Below are positions 14,365 to 41,391 of a DNA stretch of 64,000 bases, in pieces. The stretch comes from Pectobacterium parmentieri (GTDB taxonomy: Bacteria > Pseudomonadota > Gammaproteobacteria > Enterobacterales > Enterobacteriaceae). Each line of letters begins with the position of its first letter. Within the stretch, counting starts at the first letter, position 1. The notes below the pieces were generated by a model. That model saw only the letters and a list, made by a program, of their open reading frames with translations. It was not told the origin of the DNA and made no database searches. The position numbers and the translations under genes are program-made. The stretch spans positions 1 through 64,000 of the forward strand of contig NZ_CP015749.1 in assembly GCF_001742145.1 (NCBI RefSeq), written 5' to 3'.

Positions 14365-14368
14365 ACCA

Positions 14369-16874: not shown

Positions 16875-16891
16875 CCGACCGGAGGATCCTG

Positions 16892-21325: not shown

Positions 21326-22276
21326 TTAATGACGAACCAGCCGAATGTCGAAATCAAATTCGTCAAAGAAAGCGTCCAAATGGTTTAGCTCTTCCTCGCT
21401 GTAGCTGGGATCGGTTTGTATTGGATAAAGGGTGCCTAGCCTTTCGTACTTTTTGCGGCCTAGTTGGTGGTAGGGCAGGATATCGATACGCCGCACGTTG
21501 CCACGTTTTGCGAGCGTTTGTACGTAGTGAATCGCACCCGTGACGGCGTCATACGAATCGTTGTATCCGCGAACGAGCGGCATGCGAATAACGATATCGG
21601 CACCCAATTCGACCAGATGCTCCAGATTACGTCGTATGTTCTCATTTCCTATACCAAACAGCGCCTTATGCTGGCTCGTGTCGATATGTTTGATATCAAA
21701 GAGGAACATATCCGTTACCGCTGCCAGTCGCTCGTAATGTGATAGTGATGTCGTCCCCTGTGTTTCCACGGCGGTATTGATCATCTTTTGTTTGCATGCC
21801 TGAAGGAGCGCAACGGCAAAATCTGTTTGCAGGCTCACCTCTCCGCCGCTGAGCGTCACACCGCCGCCCGAAGACTGATAAAAGCTATAGTCTTGCATGA
21901 TGACGGCCATCAATTCCGCGACCGTCATATCTTGCCCTATGATATCAAGCGCATGAGAAGGGCATATCGCCTCACATTTTCGGCACCCTGTGCATTGAAT
22001 AGCGCGATCGATATGATGAAATCGCTGTCCACGAGCATCAGCGAGCAGGGTGTGGATGTGGTGGGGACAGACTTCGTCACATTTGCCGCAGTGCTGGCAT
22101 TTATCCGGCGAAAACATGATTTGATAGGCACGACGTATCCCCTCTGGATTGGCGCACCAAGGGCAGAGAATATTGCAGCCTTTCAGAAAAATCAGCGTGC
22201 GAACGCCTTCTCCATCATGGAGAGAGTATTTCTGAATATTAAATATTCGGCCGGTGATGTCTTGTGCTGATTCCAT
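21326..22276 (-). CDS. cutD: Glycyl-radical enzyme activase, CutD-type (radical SAM)
   Basis: A 316-residue radical SAM activase. The SAM cluster motif is GCNILCPWC (CX3CX2C). Two added ferredoxin-like clusters follow: CQHCGKCDEVCP and CTGCRKCEAICP. LSGGEVSLQ is the SAM-binding GGE motif. It should install the glycyl radical on the neighbouring CutC under anaerobic conditions. The ATG at 22276 has GGGGAG just upstream; a GTG 12 bases earlier is less likely. It lies 87 bp after cutC and before the two SMR genes. Confidence 0.9.
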   Translation of the reverse strand: MESAQDITGRIFNIQKYSLHDGEGVRTLIFLKGCNILCPWCANPEGIRRAYQIMFSPDKCQHCGKCDEVCPHHIHTLLADARGQRFHHIDRAIQCTGCRKCEAICPSHALDIIGQDMTVAELMAVIMQDYSFYQSSGGGVTLSGGEVSLQTDFAVALLQACKQKMINTAVETQGTTSLSHYERLAAVTDMFLFDIKHIDTSQHKALFGIGNENIRRNLEHLVELGADIVIRMPLVRGYNDSYDAVTGAIHYVQTLAKRGNVRRIDILPYHQLGRKKYERLGTLYPIQTDPSYSEEELNHLDAFFDEFDFDIRLVRH

Positions 22277-22363
22277 TTCACTCCCCACATCTCACTCTGC
22301 CTGAGGCAAGATAAACATCCTTGTTCACGGCGTGTGTCTTACTTATCTGCACGTGTTGAGGGG

Positions 22364-24868
22364 TCAGAATTTCTCAATCATGGTGCGGCTAATGATTTCA
22401 TCCTGAACTTCTTTACAAAGCTCAACGAAGTACGCGCTGTAGCCCGCCACGCGAACGATTAAATCACGGTATTTTTCTGGTTCCTGCTGGGCTTTCCGCA
22501 ACACCTCATCGTCAACGTAGCTGAATTGCATCTGACCATTGCCCAAAATGGAGGACGTTCTCAGCAGAGTGATCAGCCCGTTGCGACCTTCTGGCGTATC
22601 CAGCATGCCTTTAAGGAATTTGAAGTTATGCACCATCCCTATGTTCATGCTTTCCACATTCATTTTACTGACAGACTTGATGCTTGCCGTCGGCCCTTTT
22701 TTGTCTGCCCCTTGCGTTGGGCTGATCCCGTCGGAGAGCGGTGTCCATGCCAGACGTCCGTTTGCGCTGGCCGCAGTTAATGCGCCGATAGGCGTATTGT
22801 TAGAGATAGACAAGGTGCCGTGGCTAAAGGTGGAATAGAGCATCTTGTATTGGCGGCACTCGCGTTCTGTCCATTCCGTGATATCGAGCGCGAGCGGGTC
22901 AACGGCGTTGTCGTCATTGCCGTATTTCGGGGCATTCAGGCAATCCCTGTGCAGTGCGTCGTAGCCTGAAAAGTTAGCTAACAGCGCGTCACGCATCTGT
23001 TCCAGCGTGTACTGACGATCTTCATAGACGAGTTTCCGAATGGCCATCATGGAATCAACGTAGGTGGCTAACCCAGAGAAGATGAGCCCAGGCCCATGAT
23101 TGATTACTGCGCCCCCTGCGGTGACATCCCGACCGGTTTCCATGCAACCTTCCACCAGCAGAGACATCAGGGGTTTGGGGGCGACATCACGATGTACACG
23201 CTGGCTGATCACGGTGCCAATTGCCGACAGGCGGATGATGTGTGCAATCTGGGCTTTCACCGCGCGGTCAAAAGCCTCGAACGTGTCTAGCGTGCTCAAG
23301 TCGCCGGTGTCCAGCCCTTGAACGCGATCAAAGAGGATCATGCGACCACGGTTTAACACGAACTCAATGGCGATGGGCCACTGGGTATAGCCCGTTGACG
23401 TCCACTGATAAATACGGCCTGATTTCTGTGGTTCTACGCAGCCCATCAGGCAGTAGTCGCGCGCATCGTCAAAATCGAAGCCTTTGCGCAGCATCATTTT
23501 GATATGAGAATCATCGAAGTGACATGCCGGGAAACCCATGCCGGATTTGACCACATCGACAATTTTTTCCATGTACTCGTGCGGTGATTGGTTATGAATT
23601 CGGCAGGCGAGCGAAGGCTGATACACTTTCACAAAACGCACCGCATCCATAATCAGGTAGGTGAGATCGTTACAGGCATCGCCGCCACTGCGTTTCTGCC
23701 CACCCACCGTCAGGTTAATAAACGGCTGATAGCCCGCGAAATATTTCGCGCCGCTTTCGCTGGACATCCACATGAGTTCCGCACATTTCAGAATGAACAT
23801 CTGTAGCAGTTCCAGTGCCTGTTCGCGCGTCAGGCGGCCGGATTGAATGTCGGCTTCATACATCGGGTAGCAGTATTGATCGACGCGCCCTAGCGAAATG
23901 CCAGTCTGGTTTTCTTCAATTTCGAACAAAGACTCCAGCGTCCAGATACTTTGCAGGGCTTCCTGCAACGTTTTAGGGGGATTGGCAGGCACGTTCTCGT
24001 TGACGTCGGCAATCATCAGGAGTTCTGCACGCCGTGAGGCGTCGGTTTCCTGTGCTGCCAGCACTCGCGCCTGTGCTGCAATGCGGCTGGCATAGGCCAT
24101 GACGCCGTCGCAGGTTTCAATTGCCGCTTTATAGAAATAGATGCGATCGATATGAGCGGGATCTTCCATACCCAGTTCGGCAAGCTTTGCCTGCGCATCG
24201 GCTTTGATGCCCTTCATCCCTTTCGTGAAGAGCAACACGTCATAACCTGGGCAGGTATCGCCGCCGCCGTTGATCTGGTGGTAAGACAGATCGCTGACAA
24301 ACGTTTCTCCGCTGAATGCCCAAAGACCCGCTTCACGATATTGTGCTTCACATACTTCATCCAGCGAACGACCTTGCCAAAAGGGTGCGATTTCTTCGCG
24401 GATGGTTTTTTTATCTTCTTCTGAGATCTGAAACGGGTCCTGAGGGCGCGTGCTCATGGTGTCCAGTTCGTCCTGCACCCAGCGCCAGGCGATATCAGGA
24501 GAGAACGCGCCGGCACGCGGTTTACCGCAGGGGTGGCCTACGATCAGTTCTTCATCCTGAATCAGAATAGGGGCGGTTTCACAGGCGCGACGAAAGGATT
24601 TTGCACGTAGCAGAATGGGGGGCAGCCCAGGATTGTGTTTCGCAACCTCGGTAAAGGCTACTGCGCGATAAATAGAGACACTGGGACGTGCCTCTAAATA
24701 GTGTGCGCGTAGACGCTGCATCCGTGGCGTAAGGGCTTCTTGCTCTGCAACGGCTTCATCGGCGGAAGATTTTTTGCTGCCATGCTGTCTGGCTATTTTT
24801 CCGCTATTCACTATGCTGTTACCGAGTGAGAAAGGGGCCGTGTCTGGTGCTAACGTGTCATTATCCAT
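22364..24868 (-). CDS. cutC: Choline trimethylamine-lyase, CutC
   Basis: An 834-residue glycyl-radical enzyme that splits choline into trimethylamine and acetaldehyde without oxygen. The active-site stretch [19 protein letters not shown] has Cys and Glu in the CVE triad, Thr 13 residues after the Cys and Tyr 17 after it. This is the spacing of C489, E491, T502 and Y506 in characterised CutC and separates it from pyruvate formate-lyase and glycerol dehydratase. AGYQPFINL supplies the aromatic residue. The radical glycine is in RVAGYSAYF near the C-terminus. The start at 24868 (MDNDTL) has AGGAG eight bases upstream. It lacks the long N-terminal extension of many enterobacterial CutC proteins, and no microcompartment genes are in the window. 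Confidence 0.92.
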
Positions 24869-25069
24869 ACGAAAATCTCCTGCTGTTATTTTTTCTGACT
24901 CAATAAAGGGTGGAAAGGTAAGTGCAGTGAGCAATCTCTGAATCCCCGCGCAGGCAGGAAATATATCCGCCTGAACATTGATTTATATATATTACTGTAC
25001 CAATCTATTGTTGTTTTTTTTGAGTTGTCGCTATTTAATAACGTTGTTTTTATAAAAATAAGATCGGTT

Positions 25070-25524: not shown

Positions 25525-26214
25525 CTACAGCGAGGCACCACCGCATATCACCAACTGCTGGCCAGTAATGGCTGCCGCAGAAGGGGAGAGCAGATAACCG
25601 ACCAAATCGGCCACTTCCTGCGGCTGAATGAAACGCCCAATCGGCGGTAGCTTCGGCGGAGAGCTCTGGCGACCCGGCATCGTCAGCATTGGGGTTTCGG
25701 TAGCGCCCGGGGCGACAATGTTCACCGTAATACCGCGTGGCGCCAGTTCCGCTGCCCAGCTTCTCGCCATACCAATCATCGCGGATTTTGTGGTCACGTA
25801 CTGGCTGCGCCCTGCGGAACCGCTAGAGGTACGGCTACCCAGTAGCACGATCCTGCCCCCTTGCAGCAGTTTATCGACCAGTCGATCGGCAAGCACCTGT
25901 GCAGCATTGATATGCAATCGCCACAGCGTTTCACCGTCCTCCAGCGAAAGCTGGCCGAGCGGGGCAGCCTTCATTATGCCAGCGGCATGGATGACGGCAT
26001 CAACCTGCACAATTTCGTCCAGAATGGCAATCAGCGTGGGCGTATCCATGATATCCACCGCGCGGTGGGTAAAGTGTGGATGTGAATAGTCACCCGGCTT
26101 GCGTGACAGGCCGGTTACCCGCCAGCCTTCCGCCAGTAATTTTTGTGTGATGGCGGCACCGATCCCTGAGCTGCTGCCGGTAATCAGGGCGTGTTTAGGG
26201 GCTGTAGCTGACAT
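25525..26214 (-). CDS. Short-chain dehydrogenase/reductase
   Basis: A 229-residue classical SDR. The nucleotide loop is ALITGSSSGIGAAI (TGxxxGIG), and HAAGIM corresponds to the NNAG motif. The catalytic residues are the serine in LLGSRTSSGSAG and the Tyr-x-x-x-Lys in SQYVTTKSA. IVAPGATETPM follows as the usual PG motif. It is the last gene of the minus-strand operon that contains the aldolase and symporter. It probably oxidises or reduces a sugar-acid intermediate, but the substrate is unknown. Confidence 0.85.
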   Translation of the reverse strand: MSATAPKHALITGSSSGIGAAITQKLLAEGWRVTGLSRKPGDYSHPHFTHRAVDIMDTPTLIAILDEIVQVDAVIHAAGIMKAAPLGQLSLEDGETLWRLHINAAQVLADRLVDKLLQGGRIVLLGSRTSSGSAGRSQYVTTKSAMIGMARSWAAELAPRGITVNIVAPGATETPMLTMPGRQSSPPKLPPIGRFIQPQEVADLVGYLLSPSAAAITGQQLVICGGASL

Positions 26215-26259
26215 GTGTCTCCTTAATCAAACTTAACGGCTTTGATGCACCATTCTTAA

Positions 26260-26727
26260 TTACAACAACGTGACGGGGATTTTAAACACGGCTTTTTTAA
26301 CCGGTGCTGGATTGTCGTTAATGGCACACAGCGCCTGATGGGCTTCTCCCGGATAGAACGTGACGAAATCGCCTGCTCGCAGATGGATCTGATGCGGCAC
26401 CTGTGGGTTATCCAGAATATAGAGATCGGGTTTACGTTCCGTCGCGGGCTGACCATGCACATCATTCAGACCGTAACCGATAATCTCTTCGCCTTCCAGA
26501 ATCAGTTGAATATCGAGATAGTTGCTGTGAAATTCGGTATGTCGGGTGGCGCGCGGTGCGGTATTCGTCGTGCCGATGTTGTAAAACCACTCGGCACCTT
26601 CTGGCTGATAGCGGCCTTCTGGCAACGCATTCAGTTCAGCTAACGACATGCCTGATGCGGACAGAATAGTCCACAGCACGTCGGGCAGTGTGGCGAGTTT
26701 TAGGGCGTTTAGGTTTCCTGCAATCAT
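26260..26727 (-). CDS. YhcH/YjgK/YiaL family protein (DUF386 cupin)
   Basis: A 155-residue beta-sandwich protein of the YhcH/YjgK/YiaL family. GRYQPEGAEWFYN, HSNYLDIQLILEGEEIIGYG and DFVTFYPGEAHQAL show the conserved His/Glu set thought to bind a metal. In E. coli, YhcH lies in the sialic-acid operon and YiaL in the sugar-acid yia operon, so members are linked with keto-sugar-acid use, perhaps as anomerases. The start at 26727 has AGGA upstream; the 28 extra residues from 26811 would overlap the sialidase-like gene. It lies between that gene and the SDR. Confidence 0.87.
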   Translation of the reverse strand: MIAGNLNALKLATLPDVLWTILSASGMSLAELNALPEGRYQPEGAEWFYNIGTTNTAPRATRHTEFHSNYLDIQLILEGEEIIGYGLNDVHGQPATERKPDLYILDNPQVPHQIHLRAGDFVTFYPGEAHQALCAINDNPAPVKKAVFKIPVTLL

Positions 26728-26792
26728 TATCGTGTCCTGAAGGAAGATAGCGGGGGAGAGCCCCCGCTGGAAAAGAGAAAAAGCAGCGTGGT

Positions 26793-27980
26793 TTAGTTCG
26801 CCTTGACCCACTCCTCACTCACCACAACATGCTTGATCGCTTGACGGAAGTAGGTGAACGCAAGATGCAGCTTACCGTCCGGTGCTTGCTTGACGCTGGG
26901 GTAAGAGAACTCGCGGTTCAGCTTCTCCGTTGAGTTATTGGTCATGCAGTAACCGTCACCCACTTCAACATTGCGCTGCCACGGCCAGCTCTTACCGCCG
27001 TCTTCCGAAATGGCGAGCGTCATCGGTGCGCGCGGTGCGCCCCAGAAGGCGCTACGATCGCCGGCTTGCACTTCTGGCATTTTTGCACCGCTGGCCTTGT
27101 CTTCTTCGTCCTCGATTTCATCGTACAGCGACAGGCGGCGATCGGTGGCATCGGCGGCGCTCATGTGGTTGAACACCAGTGCCAGATGACCGTTTTGCAG
27201 CGTAGTCACCTGAATGGACGAGTTGTTGTTCGGCAAATCGGTTGCTACCGGATCTGACCAGGTTTTACCGCCATCCGTTGAACGGCTTTGGTAGATAAAA
27301 TCGGCCCAGCGACTGCGGTACAGCGCCAGCAGCGTGCCGTCCTGCAACGGGGTGATGTTCATGTGTACGCAGCCCGTGCTGTTCGGTACCGAATATTCCC
27401 GCCAGGTTTTACCCCGATCGCTGGAAATCTTCACGGCGCTGTCATCATTATTGCCGACCCATTTCTCACCTGGCTGAACGCGGCAGTAGAACACCGGCAG
27501 CAGCCAGTCGCCGTTTTCCAATACGGTGATGGGCTGGCGGATAAAGGTGCCCGGCTGATCGAGCAGCGTGCCGATTTCGCCCCAGGTGGCACCCAAATCG
27601 GTGGACTGGCGGTAGCGCACAATCGCGGTGTCCTGATTACCGGATTTCTGCGCGGTATACAGCAGCCACAGCACGTTATCCGGCGCGAGGAACAGTACTG
27701 GGTTCTGTTCAGAACGCGTCGCATCCTCAGACAGCTTAACGGCTTTACTCCAGCTATCGCTGCCTTTCACAAGGCGGGACATGTAGATAGAGATATCCGC
27801 AATCCCTTCTTGTGTACCACCGAACCAGACGCACAGTACATCGCCATTCGGCAGATGGAGCAGGTTGGCCGCATGATTTTGCGGGCATTCCGACGGAATG
27901 TAGGCATCCAGACGCACGGCATCGCCTTCTGCGTGATGAACTTTTCCGCTACGTTCCACAGTAATGGTTTCGCTACTCAT
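26793..27980 (-). CDS. Sialidase-fold (BNR/Asp-box) protein, cytoplasmic
   Basis: A 395-residue six-bladed beta-propeller of the sialidase/BNR_2 type. Four Asp-boxes can be seen: STDLGATW, SSDRGKTW, STDGGKTW and SEDGGKSW. There is no signal peptide, so it acts on a small imported molecule, not on polymer outside the cell. It starts 4 bp after the symporter stop and precedes the YhcH-type gene. The family includes sialidases, anhydrosialic-acid enzymes and a GH33 enzyme that releases the pectin sugar Dha. Here the substrate may be a glycosidically linked keto-deoxy sugar acid. The exact reaction is not readable. Confidence 0.8.
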   Translation of the reverse strand: MSSETITVERSGKVHHAEGDAVRLDAYIPSECPQNHAANLLHLPNGDVLCVWFGGTQEGIADISIYMSRLVKGSDSWSKAVKLSEDATRSEQNPVLFLAPDNVLWLLYTAQKSGNQDTAIVRYRQSTDLGATWGEIGTLLDQPGTFIRQPITVLENGDWLLPVFYCRVQPGEKWVGNNDDSAVKISSDRGKTWREYSVPNSTGCVHMNITPLQDGTLLALYRSRWADFIYQSRSTDGGKTWSDPVATDLPNNNSSIQVTTLQNGHLALVFNHMSAADATDRRLSLYDEIEDEEDKASGAKMPEVQAGDRSAFWGAPRAPMTLAISEDGGKSWPWQRNVEVGDGYCMTNNSTEKLNREFSYPSVKQAPDGKLHLAFTYFRQAIKHVVVSEEWVKAN

Positions 27981-27983
27981 GAC

Positions 27984-29399
27984 TCAGGCTCCTGATTTAT
28001 TTTCAGTTTGAGAAATTTTGATTTTGTTCGCTTTGTTCGGGATCATGCGGTCGATCAGTATGACGACAGCCGGGGTAACCAGCGCGACATACATGTTATC
28101 GATGCCGTATGGGTTGCCGAGAATATACCAAACAGAGGTGACCACGCAGGCTGATATCAGGCTGGCGTTTGCACCGCGGGCGCTGCCGAAGAACGGCAGA
28201 TAGAACGCGATCACGGCAACCACGGAAATCGATAGGCGAATGGCACGGGTAAAGAACGACAGTTTCAGAATTTCAGGGACGAACAGAACGAAGATGAGTG
28301 GCGCGAAACCTACGACAAGCGAGAGGATCCGGGTCATTTTCATTTCTTTTTCTGGCGTCGGTTTCCAGTAAGGGACGTAGAAGTCTTTAATCAGCAGGGA
28401 AACGATAGCTAGTGCCACCATACTCACGCTGATGAAGATAGATGCAACCAGCGATGTCGTGACCAGACCAGCGAGCCATGGGTTCATGTCTTGCAGGAAG
28501 ACTGGCATAGCGTACAGGCTGCTGATTTCAGGGTGGGCAAACTTCGCTGCGACGCCGATGACCGCGATAGCCAGTGCAATCGGCATACAGAAGAAGAAGG
28601 CAACCCAGGTCGCGCGTTTGGCACTGGTAGCATCTTTGGTTGACGAAATGGCCTGAATCACGAACTGCGTACAGAAGATAGAACCGATGGTACCGATCAG
28701 CCAAGCGAAGATAGTGCTGGCACCGAGTTTTCCATCCCACGTCCAGTAGTAATCCGGCATTTGTTCGATCATCGGTTTGAAGCCACCGGTCATTTTTAAC
28801 GCCACAAACAGAATGATCATCACGCCCACGTATTTCACGGCGCTATGGATCAACGTGATGTAGGCTGTCCCTTTCAGGCCACCGAAGTAGTAGTAGAAGG
28901 TACTGACGATAGCAGTGATCACGGCGGCGACCGGTAGGGAGACTTTCAACACGGTGGCGATGGCTGCCGCGCCGCTGACGTAGTTGCCCACGTTAACCAG
29001 CAACAGTGCGTAGATCATGATGATCGAGATAATATTTTTGGTGCTGGTACCGTATTTCTCGGCAATCGCGCCGGAGATGGTGATTTTCCCGGTGTTATAA
29101 ATCTTTTTCACCAGAATCATACCAAACAGCGGGAAGCCGATAGCGGCGCCAATCACCGACCATGATGCGGCAAAGCCGTTCTCAAAGGCGGACTGTGCCG
29201 TACCGATGGTGGATTTGGCACCGATAAACTCAGTCATCAGCAGGATACCGACGATAAACGCCGGTAGCGCGCGCGAGCCTTCCATGAACTCGGTGTTCGA
29301 TTTACTGCGGAGCTTGTAGGTTAACCATGAGGTGAATGCGATATAAAACACAATCATCCCAACGATTATGAGGGTGTCAGTTAAGTTAAAATGGTTCAT
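27984..29399 (-). CDS. Sodium:solute symporter (SSS family)
   Basis: A 471-residue SSSF transporter with about 13 hydrophobic segments. MTEFIGAKSTIGTAQSAFENG is the TM2 sodium/substrate region; ISGAIAEKYGTSTKNI and YYYFGGLKGTAYIT are family-typical loops. It lies between the aldolase gene (38 bp gap) and the sialidase-fold gene (4 bp), with GAGAAGAT before its ATG. In sialic-acid operons of other bacteria a related SSS protein (SiaT) imports the acid, so import of a keto-deoxy sugar acid or its glycoside is the likely role. Confidence 0.9.
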   Translation of the reverse strand: MNHFNLTDTLIIVGMIVFYIAFTSWLTYKLRSKSNTEFMEGSRALPAFIVGILLMTEFIGAKSTIGTAQSAFENGFAASWSVIGAAIGFPLFGMILVKKIYNTGKITISGAIAEKYGTSTKNIISIIMIYALLLVNVGNYVSGAAAIATVLKVSLPVAAVITAIVSTFYYYFGGLKGTAYITLIHSAVKYVGVMIILFVALKMTGGFKPMIEQMPDYYWTWDGKLGASTIFAWLIGTIGSIFCTQFVIQAISSTKDATSAKRATWVAFFFCMPIALAIAVIGVAAKFAHPEISSLYAMPVFLQDMNPWLAGLVTTSLVASIFISVSMVALAIVSLLIKDFYVPYWKPTPEKEMKMTRILSLVVGFAPLIFVLFVPEILKLSFFTRAIRLSISVVAVIAFYLPFFGSARGANASLISACVVTSVWYILGNPYGIDNMYVALVTPAVVILIDRMIPNKANKIKISQTENKSGA

Positions 29400-29437
29400 A
29401 TCTTCTCGGCCTATAAGTGGAAATTGAAATTTCTCTG

Positions 29438-30322
29438 TTACTGCGAGAATGGTTTAAGTATGTTGCGGATGTTGTCTTCATCCTGTGCGGAAAACTGGAT
29501 CGGATAGCGGCTGACGCCGACATCTTCACCCATGATCGCTAGCGCTTTCTTCACCACAGCCGGTGAGAACGCGATGGCGTACAGTGTCTTACGCAATTCG
29601 GCAACCTGTTCCTGTGCCTGACGAGAGCCTTCGATGTCACCGGCATGGAAACGGTGCCAAATCTGGCTGATCGGTTCCGGTGCCACGTTAGCCAGCCCGG
29701 AAATACAGGCGGAGCAGCCGTCAACAAAGCCCTGGTGAATGAGCGAGTCTGGGCCATTCAATACGTTAAAACCCTGTACGCCTTTCACCGCTTGCACATA
29801 GCTGCTCAGGCTTTCATAGCTGCCTGCGCTGTCTTTGATGCCGATGATGTTCGGGTGATCCGCCAGCGTGCGGACGGTTTCCGGTGCCAGCGTGTTCCCC
29901 GTGCGTGCAGGAATGTTGTAGAGAAACACCGGCACGGTCAGCGCATCGGCGACGGCGGTGTAGTGGGCGATCAGTTCTTCCTGTTTTAGTGGAATGAAAT
30001 ACGGGGTGATGACCGAAACGGCGTCGACACCCAGCGCGGCGATGCGCTTGCCGAGCTTGATGGTTTCCCGCGTGGAGATTTCACCGATGTGGCCGACAAC
30101 GGGCACTTTTCCGGCAACTTCATCCACGCAGGTTTCCGTGACGGCGACTTTCTCATCGGTGTGCAGAACGAAAAACTCACCGTTGGTGCCGTTACAGAAA
30201 ATACCGTTGCCATAGCGCATCTGGCGTTGAACCTGAAGACGCATGGCTGCGGGATTAAATTCGCCCTGGTTATCAAATGGCGTGACGATGGCGGTCAGGA
30301 CGCCAGTAATGTTCTTACTCAT
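29438..30322 (-). CDS. DHDPS/NanA-family pyruvate aldolase
   Basis: A 294-residue class I aldolase. The Schiff-base lysine is in NIIGIKDSAG, the catalytic tyrosine in FLYNIPARTGN, and FCNGTNGEFFVL is the pyruvate-binding GTTGE-like loop. Housekeeping DapA is unlikely because the gene is the first of a catabolic operon with a symporter. The NanA pattern YNIPALSG is absent, so sialic acid itself is uncertain. It should cleave a 2-keto-3-deoxy sugar acid to pyruvate and an aldehyde. The start at 30322 has AGGA eight bases upstream. Candidate operator dyads lie at 30361-30390. Confidence 0.85.
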   Translation of the reverse strand: MSKNITGVLTAIVTPFDNQGEFNPAAMRLQVQRQMRYGNGIFCNGTNGEFFVLHTDEKVAVTETCVDEVAGKVPVVGHIGEISTRETIKLGKRIAALGVDAVSVITPYFIPLKQEELIAHYTAVADALTVPVFLYNIPARTGNTLAPETVRTLADHPNIIGIKDSAGSYESLSSYVQAVKGVQGFNVLNGPDSLIHQGFVDGCSACISGLANVAPEPISQIWHRFHAGDIEGSRQAQEQVAELRKTLYAIAFSPAVVKKALAIMGEDVGVSRYPIQFSAQDEDNIRNILKPFSQ

Positions 30323-30360
30323 TGTTTTTCCTCGTGACACGTAATCAAAAAGTGAAAACC

Positions 30361-30390
30361 TAAAACTGTTCTACTTAAAACGGTGTTCTT
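30361..30390. promoter_or_regulatory. Tandem IclR-type dyads upstream of the aldolase operon
   Basis: TAAAACtGTTCTA (30361-30373) and TAAAACggtGTTCTT (30376-30390) lie 40-70 bp before the aldolase start. The second agrees with the dyad TAGAACtgtGTTCTA before yjhH at 12 of 15 positions and also resembles the KdgR box of pectin genes. The regulator is inferred. Confidence 0.45.
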
Positions 30391-30423
30391 TAAAGCCTCA
30401 AGCCTGTCTTTAGGGGAAACTCC

Positions 30424-30454
30424 GGGGGAGGTTCCCGCAGGGACGCCTCACCCC
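30424..30454. other. GC-rich hairpin between aldolase and alcohol dehydrogenase genes
   Basis: GGGGGAGG pairs with CCTC-A-CCCC around an inner TCCC-GCA-GGGA stem. There is no T-run on either side. It could end the dehydrogenase transcript or be a copy of a dispersed palindromic repeat; I see no second copy in this window. Confidence 0.45.
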
Positions 30455-30516
30455 TGTGGTCGCCCCGTATATCTCGATGCTTAAACAATCAACATGAGCG
30501 ATTTAGAGCCGCGCGA

Positions 30517-31653
30517 TTAAAACAGGGTCAGATAAACTTCACGTACATCGTCAGCACTAACTTGCGTCGGTACATTTTTCATCAGGCGCTGAACCTGTAA
30601 TGCGGCATCGACCAGGTAGGGCAGGTGATCTTTTTCCACACCGAGCTGCTGCAGGGTGTTGGGCAGGTTGAGCCGTTTGACCAACTCGCTGAAATAGGCC
30701 ACCAGCGCCTGCGCTTTTTCTGCCGTACCGAGCGTCAGATCGGCATCCGGCAGCAGGTCATACGCTTGGGCAAATTTGTCCTGTGCGGCGTCCTGTACGA
30801 AACGCATGCAAGGTGCGAGCAGGATGGCGTTCGCCACGCCGTGTGGAATGTGGTACTTGCCGCCCAGCGGGTAAGACATCGCGTGAACCAGATGCGTACC
30901 GGAGTGAGCAATGGCGGCACCACCGTAGTAGGACGCCCACAGCATGTTCAGCTTGGCTTCCATATTGCCCGGCTCGCGCACGGAGGTTTCGAGGTTGGCA
31001 AACAGCTTTTTCAGGCCAATCAGTGCGTAGTTGTCGCTGACCGGGTTGGCAATCGTTGAGGTGAAGCACTCAATCAGGTGGCAGAGCGCATCAATACCGG
31101 TTGAAGCGGCGATATGCGATGGCATGCTGATGGTCAGCTCCGGCACCAGTGCAACGTAGTCCGGCAACATCACTGGCGTAATAATGCCGACTTTGGTCTC
31201 TTTCTCTGGGATCGCCAGAATGGCATTTGGCGTAGCTTCTGAGCCGGTTCCCGCCGTGGTTGGGATAAGCAGGGATGTCGTGCGGCGAGTGGGTTTTTCC
31301 CCTGCCAGCAGGCTATCCAGTGTCACGGTTTCATCACCTGCACACAGTACGGAAAGCAGTTTGGCAACATCCAGCACGCTGCCGCCGCCTACGCCGATGA
31401 CCAGATCGGTCTGGATTTGTGTGAGCTGACTCAGTATCTGGGCAACGTCGTGCTGGCTTGGCTCGGCAGGCACATTATCAACCAGCAAAACCTGCGGAAC
31501 GGCTTGCTTAACTTGTGCGATCAGCGCCTTAACATCAGGCAGCCCGACAATATTTTTGTCGGTGACAAATAAAACGTGCTGTTTCCCTGCTAACAGGTGA
31601 CTGATGTCCTGAAGTACCCGGTAGCCGCTGAGGATAGTGCTATTGATGTTCAT
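30517..31653 (-). CDS. Iron-containing (group III) alcohol dehydrogenase
   Basis: A 378-residue Fe-ADH. The nucleotide site is VIGVGGGSVLDVAKLL, followed by PTTAGTGSEATP. Metal ligands are the Asp and first His in ASTGIDALCHLIE, with later histidines in SGTHLVHAM and KYHIPHG. The start at 31653 (MNINSTIL) has AAGG upstream; the 27-residue extension from 31734 is compositionally odd and rejected. It is divergent from the four-carbon sugar-acid kinase gene and in the same direction as the aldolase operon. It may reduce the aldehyde made by the aldolase, or oxidise a sugar alcohol. Confidence 0.87.
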   Translation of the reverse strand: MNINSTILSGYRVLQDISHLLAGKQHVLFVTDKNIVGLPDVKALIAQVKQAVPQVLLVDNVPAEPSQHDVAQILSQLTQIQTDLVIGVGGGSVLDVAKLLSVLCAGDETVTLDSLLAGEKPTRRTTSLLIPTTAGTGSEATPNAILAIPEKETKVGIITPVMLPDYVALVPELTISMPSHIAASTGIDALCHLIECFTSTIANPVSDNYALIGLKKLFANLETSVREPGNMEAKLNMLWASYYGGAAIAHSGTHLVHAMSYPLGGKYHIPHGVANAILLAPCMRFVQDAAQDKFAQAYDLLPDADLTLGTAEKAQALVAYFSELVKRLNLPNTLQQLGVEKDHLPYLVDAALQVQRLMKNVPTQVSADDVREVYLTLF

Positions 31654-31818
31654 GCTTATTACCTTGCCTTTTCTCTTCTTCGCCAGAGCGTTATCGTGAT
31701 GATAATGGTTGCGATGGTGATTATTTTCAGTCAAGTGGCGTGGTTTTCATCACAACTGAACGCCATTTGCCACATCGTGGTGATAATTTATAGGTGAAAT
31801 TCCTTTTAAATAATTTGA

Positions 31819-31851
31819 TATTGCTCACATATAATCAAATGTGATTCAATA
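31819..31851. promoter_or_regulatory. Extended dyad in the divergent ADH/kinase promoter
   Basis: TATTG-CT-CACAT, 8 bases, then ATGTG-ATT-CAATA: matching outer and inner arms form a nearly symmetric 33-bp operator-like element 38 bp before the kinase start. The arrangement TCACA...TGTGA is outward-facing, so it is not a CRP site. ATAATCA also recurs at 31831, 31851 and 31865. Confidence 0.5.
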
Positions 31852-31888
31852 TAATCATTGTCAGATAATCATGAACCGGAAATGAGGT

Positions 31889-33217
31889 ATGCCAAACATG
31901 CAGCAATCAGCAGAGTTGGTCGTCGTTGTCGCTGATGATTTTACGGGTGCCAATGATGCGGGCGTCGGACTGGCGCAGCATGGTGCGCGGGTTAGCGTCG
32001 TATTTGACGTTAATAAACTGCATGCGGATTTACTGGGTGATGCGGTAGTCATCAACACCGATAGCCGGGCGGCGCATAGCGATGTGGCGTCTCAACGTAC
32101 CGCAGACGCGGTAGCCGCCTGGCAGGCAGCGGGCGGGCAAGGCTGGATTATTAAGAAGATTGACTCGACGTTACGCGGGAATCTGGGCGCGGAAGTTGCC
32201 GCGGCGCTGTCTGCGGCAGAGGTGCCTGTTGCACTGATTGCTGCGGCATCGCCGACGCTGGGACGTATTACCCGAAAAGGTGAAGTCTGGGTTAATGGTC
32301 GTTTGCTTACCGATACCGAATTTGCCAGCGATCCGAAAACCCCGGTGGCCTCGGCTTCTATTGCCGCTCGTCTGGCGGAACAGACCGCGTTGCCAGTGGC
32401 AGAAGTCCATCTTGATGAGGTTCGTCAGACTAATTTAGCCCTGCGTTTACAGCAGTTGGCTGACGAGGGGGCGCGTCTGATTATTCTTGATACGGACGTG
32501 CAAGACGACCTGGCGCATATTGTTGATGCCGCCAAGGCGCTGCCGTTTCGTCCCTTGTTGGTCGGCTCGGCAGGCCTGAGCGAAGCGCTGGCCAATGCGC
32601 TGGATTTTACACACAAAGCCGAGAAACCGCTGCTGGCCGTCGTGGGATCAATGAGTGATATTGCTCAAAAACAGATTGCAATCGCTCGCCAGCACCGCGA
32701 TGTCACGCTGGTTGAGATCGACATCAGCGCGCTCTTTTCATCCCATTCATCCACCGTCATGGCGTCCCAGTGTCAGGACGCGGTGAGCGCACTGATGAAC
32801 GGCCAACACTGCATTATTCGTACCTGTCACAACGAGAACCAGCGCTTCGAGATCGACGCGCGGTGTCAGCAACTTGGGCTTACCCGCCAGCAGCTTGGCG
32901 AAACGATCAGCCATTATCTAGGGGAACTTACGCGCAGCATTGTTCAGGCTCTAGATAGCCTGGCAGCAGACGACACTAGCCGACGCTTGCCGGGGGGACT
33001 GTATTTATCGGGTGGTGATATTGCGATTGCCGTGGCAACCGCACTGGGCGCGACCGGTTTTCAGATTAAGGGGCAAATCGCATCCTGTGTGCCTTGGGGA
33101 TACCTGCTGAACAGCGTTGTCGGCATGACCCCTGTGATGACTAAAGCGGGGGGTTTTGGCAACGAAACTACTTTGCTCGACGTTTTACGTTTTATTGAGG
33201 AGAAGGTCAGTGAGTAA
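31889..33217 (+). CDS. dtnK: Four-carbon acid sugar kinase (DUF1537, DtnK/OtnK type)
   Basis: A 442-residue DUF1537 kinase. The N-terminal domain has [17 protein letters not shown] and [15 protein letters not shown], the acid-binding residues. The C-terminal nucleotide domain has [13 protein letters not shown] and [15 protein letters not shown]. The family phosphorylates D-threonate, L-threonate, D-erythronate or related C4 acids at O4. The next gene is pdxA2, its known partner, and the two overlap by 8 bp. Either ATG at 31889 or 31898 is possible: GAGG is one base from the first and ten from the second. Confidence 0.88.
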
Positions 33218-34190
33218 AATTATTGCAGTAACGATGGGTGATCCGGCAGGGATTGGACCAGAAATTATTATCAAATCTCTGGCCGAAGGTGAGCTTTCCG
33301 GCGCATCTGCTGTGGTGGTGGGCTGCGTACAGACGATGCGACGTGTTCTGGCGCTGAATGTGGTGCCTGCCGTAGAGTTGAAAATCATTGATAAACCGGC
33401 TGACGCCGTATTCGCACCGGGCGTCATCAACATCATTGATGAACCGCTGGAAGATCCACAGGCGCTGAAGCCGGGTGTCGTTCAGGCACAAGCGGGCGAT
33501 TTAGCTTACCGCTGCATCAAGAAGGCCACCGAACTGGCAATGGCGGGTGAGGTGCATGCGATCGCGACCGCGCCGCTGAATAAAGAAGCGCTGCACTCGG
33601 CGGGCCACCTTTATCCGGGTCACACCGAACTGCTGGCGAAGCTGACCAACAGCCGCGACTATGCGATGGTGCTGTATACCGATAAGCTGAAGGTTATCCA
33701 TGTTTCAACGCACATTGCGCTGCGAAAATTCCTCGATACCCTGAACCGCGATCGCGTGGAAACGGTGATCGACATGGCAGACGTCTTCCTTAAACGCGTC
33801 GGTTTTACCCACCCACGTATCGCCGTTGCCGGGGTTAACCCGCATGCGGGTGAGAATGGCTTGTTTGGTGACGAAGAGATTAAAATTGTCTCGCCATCGG
33901 TTGAAGCCATGAAGGCCAAAGGCATTGATGTGTATGGTCCGTGCCCGCCGGATACCGTCTATTTGCAGGCGTATGAAGGCCAGTACGATATGGTGGTGGC
34001 GATGTATCACGATCAGGGGCACATCCCGCTCAAGCTGTTGGGCTTCTATGACGGAGTGAACATCACCGCTGGGTTGCCGTTTATTCGCACCTCGGCTGAC
34101 CACGGTACGGCATTTGACATTGCCTGGACGGGTAAAGCGAAGCCTGAAAGCATGGCGATCTCGATTCAGCTCGCGATGCAACTGGCCTGA
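33210..34190 (+). CDS. pdxA2: PdxA2-type 4-phospho-threonate/erythronate dehydrogenase
   Basis: A 326-residue PdxA-family enzyme starting at GTG 33210 ([18 protein letters not shown]) inside the kinase stop region, with GAGGAGAAGG upstream. Metal ligands sit in [19 protein letters not shown] and [12 protein letters not shown]. PdxA2 oxidises and decarboxylates the 4-phosphorylated C4 acid to dihydroxyacetone phosphate. The coupled DUF1537 kinase favours this catabolic role over vitamin B6 synthesis. A strong hairpin follows the stop. Confidence 0.88.
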
Positions 34191-34651: not shown

Positions 34652-35569
34652 ATGGGATTTATCACCAAGTTCGCCGGGATCATTCCGCCAGTGTCGTCAA
34701 TCTTTACGAGTGACGGCCTTCTGGATGAAGCAGGAATGCAACGCGTGATTGACAGCCTGATCGCCGCAGGCGTGAATGGGCTATTTTTCCTCGGTACAGG
34801 AGGGGAATTTTCGCAAATGTCTGCGACAGAGCGTATGGCATTGACCGAGGCTGTGATTCGTATGGTGGATCGCCGTGTTCCGGTATTGATTGGCGTAGGC
34901 AGTACAAACACGCGTGAAGCCGTCGCGCTGAGTCAACATGCTGAGACCGCTGGTGCAGATGCGGTTGTCGCTATTAACCCCTATTACTGGCAAATTACCG
35001 AAGAGAACTTGATGGGCTATTACGGCGCCATCGCCACCGCTGTCTCGCTCCCGGTGATTTTGTACAATTTCCCCAAGCTCACCGGTCAGGATCTCTATCC
35101 CGCTCTCGTGAAACGTCTGGCCGATGCACATCACAACATTGTCGGTATCAAAGACACCATCGATTCTGTGGCGCATTTGCGCGATATGATCACCACGGTG
35201 AAGGCCGCCCATCCTGATTTCGCGGTGTTCTGTGGTTTTGACGATCACTTATTGAATACGGTGTTGATGGGGGGAGACGGGGCAATCTCCGCCAGTGCCA
35301 ATTTTGTACCTGAACTGTCGGTCGGTATCTATCAGGCGCTGCGTAATGGGGAATTCGCTGAGGCGATGGACATGCATAAAACGATTTTGCAATTGCCGCG
35401 TCTCTATCAAATTGACAGTCCATTTGTGAATGTCGTGAAAGAAGCAATGACGCTAATGGGGCTGGATATTTCCACGGCCTGTTTAGCGCCGACACAGCCA
35501 TTAAATAACGAGCAGAAAGCACAGGTTCGGCAAACGCTCGTTGATGCGGGCGTGTTATCAGAAAAATAA
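34652..35569 (+). CDS. yjhH: 2-dehydro-3-deoxy-D-pentonate aldolase (YjhH/YagE-like)
   Basis: A 305-residue DHDPS-superfamily aldolase. It matches E. coli YjhH and YagE through FSGIIPPVSS-like start residues, LFFLGTGGEFSQM, NPYYW, VILYNFPKLTGQDL (catalytic Tyr), NIVGIKDTIDSVAHLR (Schiff-base Lys), CGFDDHLLNT and GGDGAISASANF. It should split 2-keto-3-deoxy-D-xylonate into pyruvate and glycolaldehyde. AAGGAGAAG precedes the ATG. It is the first gene of a yjhH-yjhG-permease set with an IclR-type operator upstream. Confidence 0.92.
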   Translation: MGFITKFAGIIPPVSSIFTSDGLLDEAGMQRVIDSLIAAGVNGLFFLGTGGEFSQMSATERMALTEAVIRMVDRRVPVLIGVGSTNTREAVALSQHAETAGADAVVAINPYYWQITEENLMGYYGAIATAVSLPVILYNFPKLTGQDLYPALVKRLADAHHNIVGIKDTIDSVAHLRDMITTVKAAHPDFAVFCGFDDHLLNTVLMGGDGAISASANFVPELSVGIYQALRNGEFAEAMDMHKTILQLPRLYQIDSPFVNVVKEAMTLMGLDISTACLAPTQPLNNEQKAQVRQTLVDAGVLSEK

Positions 35570-35708
35570 CGAAAAGATTTATCCGGTTACGGGACGCTGG
35601 TGCCGTGCATGTGGCCTGAAACCGGAATTCAGTGAGTAGTGATGTCGTGCATGCTGTTATCTAAAAGAAAACAGTACGTTTTATTCCCAAAAAATAAGTG
35701 AATAAGCC

Positions 35709-37676
35709 ATGTCTATAAATACAATTTTTCATCAGGACAATGCGCAGATTTATGACATTCAGACGCATGCGGAAGGTCCTCAGGGAGCATTACCGCTGAC
35801 ACCGGAAATGCTGATTGACTCGCCGAGCGGCCATATTTTCGGCCTGACGCTTAATGCTGGTATGGGATGGGATCCGAATAAATTACTGGGTAGCGAGGTA
35901 TTAATTTTAGGTACGCAGGGCGGGATCCGCGATGCCGATGGTAAGCCTGTGGCATTAGGTTATCACACGGGACATTGGGAGATTGGCTTGCAGATGCGCG
36001 CGGCGGCTGAAGAAGTTGCGCTGCATCGTGGCGTGCCGTTTGCCGGTTATATCAGCGATCCTTGCGATGGTCGTTCTCAGGGAACCACCGGCATGTTTGA
36101 TTCATTGCCGTATCGGAATGATGCTGCGGTGGTCTTTCGTCGTCTGATTCGATCGCTCCCCACCCGCAAAGCGGTTATCGGTGTCGCCACCTGTGACAAA
36201 GGGCTGCCGGCGATGATGATTGCGCTGTCCTCTATGCATACTCTGCCGACGATTATTGTTCCCGGCGGGGCTACATTGCCGCCAACACAGGGTGAAGATG
36301 CCGGGAAAGTTCAGACCATTGGCGCTCGTTTTGCCAACCACGATATCACGCTGGAAGAAGCCGCGATGCTTGGCTGTCGAGCGTGCGCTTCGCCGGGCGG
36401 CGGATGCCAATTTCTTGGCACGGCAGGGACTTCCCAGGTGGTGGCAGAGGCGCTGGGGCTGGCATTACCCCATTCGGCACTGGCACCTTCTGGTCAGGAG
36501 GTCTGGCTGGAAATTGCCCGGCAATCGGCGCGTGCGGTATTGACGCTAGAGCGTAAGGGGTTAAGCACCAGAGATATCCTGACTGATAAGGCTATCGAGA
36601 ATGCGATGGCGGTTCATGCGGCGTTTGGTGGGTCAACCAATTTGCTGCTGCATATTCCCGCGATTGCACATGCTGCTGGCTGCCGGATCCCGAGTGTTGA
36701 TGATTGGACTGCGATCAATCGTCGCGTGCCGCGTCTGGTGAGTGTTTTGCCTAATGGCCCGGTTTATCATCCTACCGTGCGTGCGTTTTTGGCTGGCGGG
36801 GTGCCGGAAGTCATGTTGCACCTGCGCGATCTGGGGTTACTGCATGAGGATGCGCTGACCGTGACGGGAGAATGTGTGGGTGACAATCTTGCGTGGTGGG
36901 AGACCTCCGAACGGCGGAGGATATTCCGTGAGCGCCTGTGGGAATTGGATGGTATCCGCCCCGATGAGGTCATCATGAGTCCCGTGCAAGCACGCGAAAG
37001 AGGATTGACGTCAACGATTACCTTCCCGATGGGCAATATTGCACCGGAAGGATCGGTGATTAAATCCACGGCGATCGATGCCTCCGTGGTGGGTGAAGAT
37101 GGTGTCTATCGTCATACCGGCAAGGCCTGCGTCTTTACCTCCGAAGCGTTGGCGATCCACGCCATTAAACACGGTCAGATTCATCACGGCGATATTATGG
37201 TCATTATCGGCGGAGGGCCATCAGGCACCGGTATGGAAGAAACATATCAGGTCACCTCGGCGCTGAAGCATTTACCCTACGGCAAACACGTGTCTCTTAT
37301 CACGGATGCCCGTTTCTCTGGTGTATCAACGGGAGCCTGCATTGGTCATGTCGGTCCGGAAGCGTTAGTCGGCGGTCCGATAGGCAAGCTGCGCGATGGC
37401 GATATTATTGAGATTATTGTCGATAGGCAGCAGTTGTCGGGCTCTATTAACTTTATCGGCACCACCGAACAGCGACTGACGCCGGAAGAAGGCGCTGAAC
37501 TGTTGGCGACACGTCAGGCCCATCCTGATTTGAGCGCTCACGCTGAGCTACCCGATGATACACGCCTGTGGGCAGCGTTGCAGGCGGCAAGCGGTGGCAC
37601 TTGGAAAGGCTGTATTTATGATACCGATAAAATTATCGATGCATTACGTGCAGGTATGAAAGTTTTAAATTATTAA
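35709..37676 (+). CDS. yjhG: D-xylonate dehydratase (YjhG/YagF-like, IlvD/EDD family)
   Basis: A 655-residue iron-sulphur dehydratase. The cluster cysteines lie in [21 protein letters not shown] and [12 protein letters not shown]. Long stretches such as [37 protein letters not shown] and [20 protein letters not shown] match YjhG. It converts D-xylonate to 2-keto-3-deoxy-D-xylonate, the substrate of the aldolase encoded 139 bp upstream. Length equals the E. coli proteins. A terminator with a T-run follows. Confidence 0.93.
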
Positions 37677-37726
37677 TGCCTTTTATTCTATATCGATAAA
37701 TTCTGTTGCAGAGATAATGTCATGTT

Positions 37727-37782
37727 GCATATTACTGTCCTGGTTTATCTTTCAGCCAGTAATATGCCGCAGAGGTTTTTTT
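37727..37782 (+). terminator. Rho-independent terminator after yjhG
   Basis: An 11-bp stem, GCATATTACTG and CAGTAATATGC, has a 19-base loop. A run of seven T follows at about 37776. Confidence 0.7.
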
Positions 37783-39346: not shown

Positions 39347-39352
39347 CGTTGT

Positions 39353-39389
39353 TGCGCTCTGGTATGTACGATAGCGTTACCAGAGCGCA
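39353..39389. terminator. Bidirectional terminator between permease and IclR genes
   Basis: A perfect 12-bp stem, TGCGCTCTGGTA and TACCAGAGCGCA, with a 13-base loop lies between two convergent stops. Confidence 0.8.
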
Positions 39390-39398
39390 CGCTTCACT

Positions 39399-40569: not shown

Positions 40570-41391
40570 ATGGATATCGCCGTGGATCCTACATTAACCG
40601 ATGCTTTCCGCATGAGCGGGGATAAAGTAAAAGGACAAAGTCGCCTTGATCAGATCATGGATTATCTGAAAAGCCATAATCTGGTGACGGTAGAGGAACT
40701 GGTGTCTGTGATCGACGCTTCTCCGGCGACGATCCGTCGTGATTTAATCAAGCTGGATGAACAGGGCGTGATTAGCCGTAGTCATGGTGGCGTGACGTTG
40801 AATCGCTTTATTCCTTCTCAGCCGACTACGAACGAGAAACAGCATCGCAATCTTCAGGAAAAGCAGGCGATTGCGCGTTATGCCGCCACATTGGTTACGC
40901 CGGGTAGCGCGGTAGTGCTGGATGCGGGAACGACGATGCTGGAATTGGCGCGTAACTTAACGCATCTGCCGCTGCGCGTGATTACCGCCGATTTGCAAAT
41001 TGCGTTATTTCTGTCTGAATTCAAGCAGATTGAAGTGACGATTATTGGCGGGCGTATTGATGACAGCAGCCAATCCTGTATCGGTGAGCATGGGCGTCGC
41101 CTGCTACGCAACATTTATCCCGATATTGCATTTATTAGCTGCAACTCGTGGAGTCTGGATAAAGGGGTGACCACACCGACGGAAGAAAAAGCCGGTGTGA
41201 AGCAAGATCTCGGTGCAAATGCCAGCCGTCGGGTGTTGCTGGCCGATAGCAGTAAATATGGGGCGTATTCCCTGTTCTGCGTGACGCCGCTGTCAGATCT
41301 GACCGATATCATCACCGACAGCGCGTTAGCGCCCGACGTACAGGCGCAACTGAAAGGTAAAACATTTAATCTTACGTTGGTTGGCGGCTGA
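40570..41391 (+). CDS. DeoR-family transcriptional regulator (YgbI-like)
   Basis: A 273-residue DeoR protein with about 25 extra residues before the usual start of the family ([20 protein letters not shown]). The helix-turn-helix is [21 protein letters not shown], followed by SHGG. The sensor domain has [28 protein letters not shown] and [12 protein letters not shown]. It resembles YgbI, a regulator tied to DUF1537/aldolase sugar-acid operons, so control of the kinase/PdxA2 genes 6 kb away is possible but unproven. It lies 15 bp before the HAD gene. Confidence 0.82.

What the first reader, a model, noticed from the sequence alone, without database searches (positions are those of the whole stretch)
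25525..34190. Possible complete pathway for a C7 keto-deoxy sugar acid (Dha of rhamnogalacturonan II)
One block holds a sodium symporter, a sialidase-fold protein without signal peptide, a DHDPS/NanA-family pyruvate aldolase, a YhcH-type protein, an SDR, an Fe-alcohol dehydrogenase, a DUF1537 C4-acid kinase and PdxA2. Carbon accounting fits 3-deoxy-lyxo-heptulosaric acid (Dha): retro-aldol gives pyruvate plus a C4 aldehyde-acid; reduction by the Fe-ADH gives a threonate/erythronate; the kinase and PdxA2 turn that into DHAP. No nanE/nanK/nagA genes are present, which argues against sialic acid. Dha and Kdo occur in plant pectin, the niche of this organism. Each enzyme family is readable in the sequence; the joined pathway is inference and I know of no description of it.
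Basis: partly seen in the sequence, partly recalled or inferred. Interest (0 to 1): 0.8.

Follow-up and report, generated by a model that had tools for sequence, protein, structure and literature searches.

The report
Pathway for a rare pectin sugar
A set of bacterial genes, kept together across many plant and gut bacteria including about a fifth of the complete E. coli genomes searched, looks like the missing route for eating a rare seven-carbon acid sugar such as Dha of plant pectin, but its substrate has not been tested.

Summary
In detail: six genes (SDR, YhcH, sialidase-fold BNR, Na symporter, DHDPS-type aldolase, Fe-ADH) diverge from a D-threonate kinase and D-threonate-4-phosphate dehydrogenase (PdxA2). 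Joining them into one pathway now has strong comparative support. At 80 aldolase loci (alpha/beta/gammaproteobacteria) PdxA2 is found at 76, Fe-ADH at 75, the kinase at 68; four other window neighbours at 0-2. A ~40-bp element between the operons is shared by 43 of 51 divergent loci. All 81 aldolases have a DapA-type Arg that suits an acid-bearing aldehyde. 3-Deoxy-D-lyxo-heptulosarate (Dha) would give exactly D-threonate. Of 17 genomes with PdxA2, 15 have the aldolase; the other two carry a KdgT permease there. New: the locus is in 1044 of 5426 complete E. coli genomes; its entry module is exchangeable (BNR/YhcH/SDR or a D-2-hydroxyacid dehydrogenase); and the 'sialidase' has the GH33 fold but His for the catalytic Glu and lacks two of three carboxylate Arg. 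Best reading: catabolism of a 3-deoxy-2-heptulosarate, most likely Dha of pectin. Steps above D-threonate are inferred. Ten searches of an open-access library found no description.

The parts
25525..26214 (-). SDR-family oxidoreductase, step unknown, goes with the BNR module
   Evidence: Pfam PF13561; in 31 of 48 BNR-only and 1 of 20 HADH-only loci
26260..26727 (-). YhcH/YiaL-family protein, probable anomerase that opens the ketose ring
   Evidence: TIGR00022 103.7 bits, cut-off 45.5; N-acetylneuraminate anomerase model 103.6, below its cut-off 160; 29 of 48 BNR-only, 0 of 20 HADH-only loci
26793..27980 (-). GH33-fold protein with altered active site (His206 for Glu, Leu322 and His36 for two Arg); presumed to free the acid sugar from a glycoside
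27984..29399 (-). SSS-family sodium symporter, presumed importer
   Evidence: PF00474 79.1 bits
29438..30322 (-). DHDPS/NAL-superfamily pyruvate aldolase (ALD), core
   Evidence: PF00701 222.5 bits; Lys, Tyr, GTN motif and DapA-type Arg in 81 of 81
30517..31653 (-). Iron-containing alcohol dehydrogenase, presumed threuronate reductase, core
   Evidence: PF00465/PF25137; at 75 of 80 loci
31815..31857 (.). Conserved element between the divergent operons (TGATTATATTcAATCAnaaTTGATTATATGTGAGCAAgaTCAA, read on the - strand)
   Evidence: 43 of 51 divergent loci; the two ATATAATCA copies at 31829 and 31849 are the only exact copies of that 9-mer in 64 kb
31889..33217 (+). D-threonate kinase DtnK (DUF1537), core
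   Evidence: NF047819 614.9 bits, cut-off 450; 847 bits end to end to PDB 4xfm/4xgj
33210..34190 (+). D-threonate 4-phosphate dehydrogenase PdxA2, core
   Evidence: NF002891 682.8 bits, cut-off 583; 579 bits to PDB 6e85 of that name
40570..41391 (+). DeoR-family regulator, probably of the two divergent operons; parted from them here by another block
   Evidence: 93-98.5% identical to the DeoR next to PdxA2 in six other Pectobacterium loci; DeoR at 53 of 80 loci

Best explanation
The locus is a complete catabolic route for a seven-carbon 2-keto-3-deoxy diacid, most likely 3-deoxy-D-lyxo-2-heptulosarate (Dha) of rhamnogalacturonan II. A small Dha-bearing compound is imported by the sodium symporter; the cytoplasmic GH33-fold protein frees the acid and YhcH opens its ring (inferred). 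The aldolase splits it into pyruvate and the C4 aldehyde-acid threuronate (inferred from family, Arg and partners). The Fe-ADH reduces that to D-threonate (inferred). DtnK phosphorylates D-threonate and PdxA2 oxidises and decarboxylates the product to DHAP (family-level function from curated models). A DeoR-type regulator acting on the shared element controls both operons (inferred). The lower part is the one-carbon-longer analogue of the glucarate route (recalled: aldolase to pyruvate plus tartronate semialdehyde, reductase, kinase).
For: All three core partners at 65 of 80 aldolase loci (37 of 44 genus-level labels), while window neighbours YagE, YjhG, GntP, IclR are at 1, 2, 0, 0 of 80. Gene order differs between lineages, e.g. 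L047, L102, L128; kinase and PdxA2 are fused in L051. Genome-level co-occurrence: BNR in 14 of 295 genomes of the order, 13 of them with the aldolase; PdxA2 at E<=1e-110 in 17, 15 of them with the aldolase. The two PdxA2 genomes without it have a KdgT permease beside PdxA2/DtnK instead. Element shared whatever the entry module, also in E. coli. Arg in 81 of 81 aldolases, Leu in the YagE paralogue. Of eight 3-deoxy-heptulosarate stereoisomers only D-lyxo and D-xylo give D-threonate. Kinase and PdxA2 carry D-threonate names. Transporters at sister loci are of DASS, TRAP, tripartite tricarboxylate and galactonate-like MFS types. No NanE in the genome.
Against: No step above D-threonate is tested in anything I found. 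The GH33-fold protein lacks the catalytic Glu and two carboxylate Arg. 20 of 80 loci have a D-2-hydroxyacid dehydrogenase and no BNR, so at least one entry substrate is not a Dha glycoside. The SDR is unplaced. I showed no link to RG-II-degrading enzymes. DtnK was not detected at 12 of 80 loci and is only 23-30% identical to the references at the alphaproteobacterial loci where seen. 6 of 19 aldolase genomes lack BNR. D-xylo would give D-threonate too. For Kdo, lyase assays needed no mutarotase (PMC13220900, passages), so the need for YhcH is not certain. The E. coli control genome also has PdxA2 over the cut-off; whether the aldolase is there was not checked.
Confidence: 0.52

Rival explanations
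1. The core handles a 3-deoxy-2-heptulosarate, but the natural substrate is not RG-II Dha: another stereoisomer, a bacterial polysaccharide constituent, or a free C7 hydroxy-diacid oxidised by the D-2-hydroxyacid dehydrogenase of the sister loci.
For: The two entry modules exchange at least 16 times on the aldolase tree; HADH-only loci have no BNR, YhcH at 0 of 20, an organic-acid-type MFS at 14 of 20; atypical GH33-fold protein; D-xylo also gives D-threonate; presence in many E. coli.
Against: Dha is the one such acid that I know of as a regular plant constituent (recalled; PMC6353982 lists it as an RG-II monomer, passages). Many hosts are plant- or pollen-linked by name (Pectobacterium, Erwinia, Pantoea, Azospirillum, rhizobia, Gilliamella, habitats recalled).
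Confidence: 0.25
2. Two separate pathways share a promoter region: a sialic-acid- or Kdo-like route (aldolase, BNR, YhcH, symporter) and a stand-alone D-threonate route (DtnK, PdxA2).
For: NanA of E. coli also cleaves Kdo (PMC13220900, passages); two genomes have DtnK-PdxA2 without the aldolase.
Against: In those two genomes a KdgT permease sits with DtnK-PdxA2, whereas it is at 2 (L081, L056) of the 104 fetched aldolase regions searched, some of them near-duplicates; aldolase next to PdxA2 and Fe-ADH in other families; no NanE; neither ManNAc nor arabinose needs Fe-ADH, DtnK and PdxA2 (recalled chemistry).
Confidence: 0.13
3. The kinase and PdxA2 serve pyridoxal phosphate synthesis, as a 2026 E. 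coli genome paper says of the same cluster, and the rest is an unrelated sugar cluster.
For: PMC12928451 says so (passages and section 14), citing earlier DUF1537 work that I did not see.
Against: Both proteins pass D-threonate equivalog cut-offs, and PdxA2 goes with the aldolase in 15 of 17 genomes.
Confidence: 0.04

Closest known systems
D-threonate catabolism (DtnK plus PdxA2; NCBIfam NF047819 and NF002891)
   Same: The lower two steps; kinase matches PDB 4xfm/4xgj end to end, PdxA2 matches 6e85
   Different: Here D-threonate is presumably made in the cell by aldolase and Fe-ADH rather than imported; no KdgT-like permease at the six named Pectobacterium loci searched (L058-L062, L113)
D-glucarate/galactarate route (GarL aldolase, GarR reductase, GarK kinase; recalled)
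   Same: Same logic: keto-deoxy diacid to pyruvate plus aldehyde-acid, reduction, phosphorylation
   Different: One carbon longer; aldolase of the DHDPS family, reductase of the Fe-ADH family; ends at DHAP
Sialic acid (Nan) pathway
   Same: Sialidase fold, DHDPS-superfamily lyase, YhcH-type protein, sodium symporter
   Different: No NanE in the genome; lyase is DapA-like with Arg; sialidase active site altered
Unnamed 'GR 6' cluster of E. coli BEN2908 and a similar S. meliloti cluster (PMC12928451)
   Same: The same kind of gene set, listed gene by gene
   Different: The passages and section that I saw give no pathway and assign the kinase/PdxA2 pair to pyridoxal phosphate synthesis

Membership tests
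D-threonate catabolic pair DtnK/PdxA2 | Both proteins pass the curated D-threonate equivalog cut-offs | tested here: met
   614.9 over 450 and 682.8 over 583 bits
D-threonate catabolic pair DtnK/PdxA2 | Activity on D-threonate | not testable with these tools
   The close solved relative 4xfm/4xgj is listed as 'Uncharacterized protein'; that it is a Pectobacterium D-threonate kinase is recalled (Zhang 2016), the paper is not held
DHDPS/NAL-superfamily Schiff-base pyruvate aldolase | Schiff-base Lys, Tyr and GTxGE-type motif | tested here: met
   81 of 81 sequences; residue roles recalled
N-acetylneuraminate lyase (NanA) | Passes a NanA model | tested here: not met
   157.2 and 125.5 bits, cut-offs 281 and 382
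Sialic acid (Nan) pathway | NanE epimerase in the genome | tested here: not met
   PF04131: 0 matches in G000; the control rings in E. coli
GH33 sialidase | GH33 beta-propeller fold | tested here: met
GH33 sialidase | Catalytic Glu and Arg triad | tested here: not met
   Glu position is His206, R342 position is Leu322; R68 position is His36 by gapless spacing (by hand); Tyr360 and Arg222 kept. By sequence alignment, not by a residue-level structure alignment
GH143 Dha hydrolase | Homology to the BT1020 N-terminal domain (recalled) | tested here: inconclusive
   Not among the listed fold matches, which is no exclusion
YhcH-type N-acetylneuraminate anomerase (NanQ) | Passes NF040884 | tested here: not met
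   103.6 bits, cut-off 160; the wider family TIGR00022 is met

The most novel reading that the evidence does not exclude
A first dedicated catabolic pathway for a keto-deoxy-heptarate, the rare RG-II acid Dha, spread through alpha-, beta- and gammaproteobacteria and present in about a fifth of complete E. coli genomes. It has a fixed core (aldolase, Fe-ADH, D-threonate kinase, PdxA2, one control element) and swappable entry modules, one of which uses a GH33-fold enzyme with a rebuilt, His-containing active site that would be a new kind of glycosidase or lyase.
Probability: 0.42. Interest if true: 0.82.

Novelty: new variant of a known kind. Interest (0 to 1): 0.72.

Why it matters
RG-II is degraded in the gut and by plant-associated bacteria, but ten searches of an open-access library gave no paper on what becomes of its Dha. 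This gives a gene set, a named intermediate (threuronate) and an end product (D-threonate to DHAP) that can be tested directly, also in a common reference strain (E. coli ATCC 25922 has the locus). It would say where D-threonate comes from in these bacteria, give a function to proteins now named 'sialidase family' and 'dihydrodipicolinate synthase family' in over a thousand E. coli genomes (names as in the rows listed), and offer a sialidase-fold enzyme with a new active site.

Tried and rejected
Sialic acid route: rejected on NanE absence, NanA models below cut-off and the partners. Kdo: cleavage gives a C5 aldose, no use for DtnK/PdxA2 (recalled chemistry, noted). D-arabino isomer: would give L-erythronate. 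Chance neighbourhood: rejected by internal control genes and by the lower-ranked DHDPS-family loci L021-L031, 0 of 11 with Fe-ADH, PdxA2 or DtnK in the fetched ~4 kb, against 19 of 19 for L002-L020 with at least one. Role of the D-2-hydroxyacid dehydrogenase: the listed solved relatives are glyoxylate reductases, phosphoglycerate and lactate dehydrogenases and the like; no substrate could be named. GH143 was not seen among the listed fold matches, which excludes nothing. A DtnK model, wanted only to read the title of 4xfm, had not finished when last asked.

Limits of the counts. Three of the 80 had no aldolase ORF and three no motif hit by regular expression; the Arg count was redone on direct translations of all 80. 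In one search, 8 of 51 regions lacked the anchor motif and were left out of the consensus. The 16 exchanges leave out rows with both or neither module; SH-aLRT support only; four long end branches and one suspect join were flagged. Labels such as BNR, HADH and DtnK come from BLAST against window or sister proteins and may miss distant ones; ORFs were called mechanically. The 19 aldolase genomes were cut at E 5.5e-57 by me, above a gap in the list. Exceptions: G222 has BNR without that aldolase (with a 279-aa partial Fe-ADH beside it); 6 genomes have the aldolase without BNR; 2 have PdxA2 without it and 4 the reverse at that threshold; 1 of 25 Pectobacterium genomes lacks the aldolase. Complete E. 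coli genomes are a biased sample.
Full report
What is there. The window comes from a Pectobacterium (BNR protein 96% identical to one of P. aroidearum; genome G000, 5.03 Mb). On the minus strand lie, in order of transcription, Fe-ADH, a DHDPS-family aldolase (ALD), an SSS symporter, a BNR_2 protein, a YhcH-family protein and an SDR; divergently lie a DUF1537 kinase and a PdxA homologue. The kinase passes NCBIfam's D-threonate kinase cut-off and the dehydrogenase the D-threonate 4-phosphate dehydrogenase cut-off. The kinase matches PDB 4xfm/4xgj end to end with 847 bits; from recall this is a P. atrosepticum protein studied with D-threonate (Zhang 2016), which I could not open. PdxA2 matches 6e85, named D-threonate 4-phosphate dehydrogenase, with 579 bits.

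Is it one pathway? ALD homologues were sought in 295 genomes of the order. The 19 best genomes (E <= 5.5e-57) had Fe-ADH or PdxA2 in the fetched ~4-kb loci in 19 of 19 cases; 0 of 11 lower-ranked loci did. Wider stretches show ALD, Fe-ADH, DtnK and PdxA2 together in several families, also in different order. A named scan gave 80 loci from alpha-, beta- and gammaproteobacteria: PdxA2 at 76, Fe-ADH at 75, DtnK at 68, BNR at 55, D-2-hydroxyacid dehydrogenase (HADH) at 27, YhcH at 32, SDR at 37, DeoR at 53 of 80; neighbours of the window that are not part of it, YagE 1, YjhG 2, GntP 0, IclR 0. In the 295 genomes BNR (E <= 1e-30) occurs in 14, of which 13 have ALD (Fisher 2e-17); in three of them (G119, G192, G252) the two lie on different contigs of draft assemblies. 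PdxA2 at E <= 1e-110 occurs in 17, of which 15 have ALD (9e-20). The two others carry DeoR, PdxA2, DtnK and a KdgT permease, the layout expected if D-threonate is imported; such a permease is found at 2 (L081, L056) of the 104 fetched ALD regions searched. In Pectobacterium 24 of 25 genomes have ALD, in the family 29 of 198 at E <= 1e-60.

Shared control. The DtnK/Fe-ADH intergenic region holds a near-invariant element, consensus TGATTATATTcAATCAnaaTTGATTATATGTGAGCAAgaTCAA, in 43 of 51 divergent loci, with either entry module; its commonest 7-mer is in 50 of 51. The two window copies of the 9-mer (31829, 31849) are its only exact ones in 64 kb. The E. coli locus has the element too, with one 9-mer exact. 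The DeoR gene that follows PdxA2 elsewhere is at 40570-41391 here, 93-98.5% identical to those of six other Pectobacterium loci.

Chemistry. By Fischer bookkeeping, cleavage of 3-deoxy-D-lyxo-2-heptulosarate at C3-C4 and reduction of the aldehyde gives D-threonate; among eight stereoisomers only D-lyxo and D-xylo do. PMC6353982 lists Dha among RG-II monomers (passages). ALD scores best with the DapA model (195.3 bits, just under its cut-off of 206.15) and stays far below the NanA cut-offs. It has Arg where DapA binds the acid group of aspartate semialdehyde (role recalled), in 81 of 81 sequences; the YagE paralogue in the window has Leu. Threuronate is shaped like aspartate semialdehyde. The scan patterns did not include that Arg. 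Sister loci use DASS, TctA, DctM and galactonate-like MFS transporters, types usual for organic acids (recalled).

Entry modules. BNR-only loci carry YhcH or SDR in 39 of 48 cases, HADH-only loci in 1 of 20 (p 3e-9); HADH-only loci have an MFS of one kind in 14 of 20 and tripartite tricarboxylate genes in 6 of 20, and HADH lies just downstream of ALD on the same strand in all 20. 7 of 80 loci have both modules, 5 neither. On the ALD tree the label BNR/HADH changes at least 16 times. So one core is fed by two modules. An HADH would make an open-chain keto acid, which would need no anomerase; this fits the lack of YhcH but its substrate is unknown.

Reach. A closely related locus (about 90% identity to Escherichia sp. 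L089) is in 1044 of 5426 complete E. coli genomes, all 1045 places on chromosomes, in strain MS 69-1 between glnS and nagE, and in strains such as 536, SE15, ATCC 25922 and an ST131. ALD at E <= 1e-60 is on 153 records of the plasmid collection, most often Sinorhizobium (62), Pantoea (24) and Agrobacterium (17); a few records are chromosome-sized. Annotated neighbours are Fe-ADH, PdxA, exo-alpha-sialidase and an ABC transporter in S. meliloti and A. fabrum.

Prior art. Ten searches of open-access papers listed no paper on a pathway for Dha or threuronate. PMC12928451 lists the E. coli cluster and notes its likeness to S. meliloti, but gives pyridoxal phosphate synthesis as the role of the kinase/PdxA2 pair (passages and section 14). 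Most subscription papers are not held.

Verdict. Core as a route for a C7 keto-deoxy diacid: likely (about 0.77, best reading and first rival together). RG-II Dha as the substrate: about even. Shown: gene families, conservation, shared element, residues, fold. Inferred: all reactions above D-threonate, transport and regulation.

Noticed in passing
window 34652-40157: A D-xylonate-type block (YagE-like aldolase, YjhG/YagF dehydratase, GntP permease, KdgR-like IclR regulator) lies between PdxA2 and its DeoR regulator; in six other Pectobacterium loci the two are adjacent, and in Brenneria L064 YagE and YjhG follow DeoR.
   Followed up: partly
window 21326-24934: Choline TMA-lyase CutC (1514 bits, cut-off 1050) and its activase CutD (384 bits, cut-off 360), also beside the locus in four Pectobacterium loci; two Mangrovibacter matches are only about 33% identical.
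   Followed up: partly
window 12457-20473: Allose/allulose-type operon: regulator, ABC transporter, D-allulose-6-phosphate 3-epimerase, allose kinase and a ribokinase-family kinase (regulator and transporter by eye).
   Followed up: partly
L051 10499-12883: Natural fusion of DUF1537 kinase and PdxA2 in one 794-aa protein.
   Followed up: yes
L093 10997-11758, L154 11949-12707, L064 12586-13311: A TerC-family membrane protein is part of the BNR-type operon in Klebsiella (Pfam), E. coli (annotated) and by eye Brenneria, together with a DASS/SLC13-type permease; its role here is unknown.
   Followed up: no
L127 11859-12917, L134 11925-12974: An Ldh_2-family dehydrogenase follows the HADH in rhizobial loci (L127 by Pfam; L134 by eye), a pairing that could interconvert the two stereoisomers of a 2-hydroxy acid.
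   Followed up: no
L114 13688-14512: Azospirillum loci have a 2-keto-4-pentenoate-hydratase-like (FAA hydrolase family) protein between BNR and SDR.
   Followed up: no
L070 14768-15811: Some HADH-type loci add a second galactonate-like MFS and a PF04199 'cyclase' hydrolase, perhaps a lactone entry.
   Followed up: no
G222 C1 around 1295000 (L187 8709-10678): A BNR gene beside a partial Fe-ADH without the aldolase, perhaps a decayed copy of the locus.
   Followed up: partly
window 42134-59358: Long region that by eye looks like tellurium-resistance-type (TerD/TerC-like) genes with phosphoribosyltransferase and kinase-like genes; no model was run on it.
   Followed up: no
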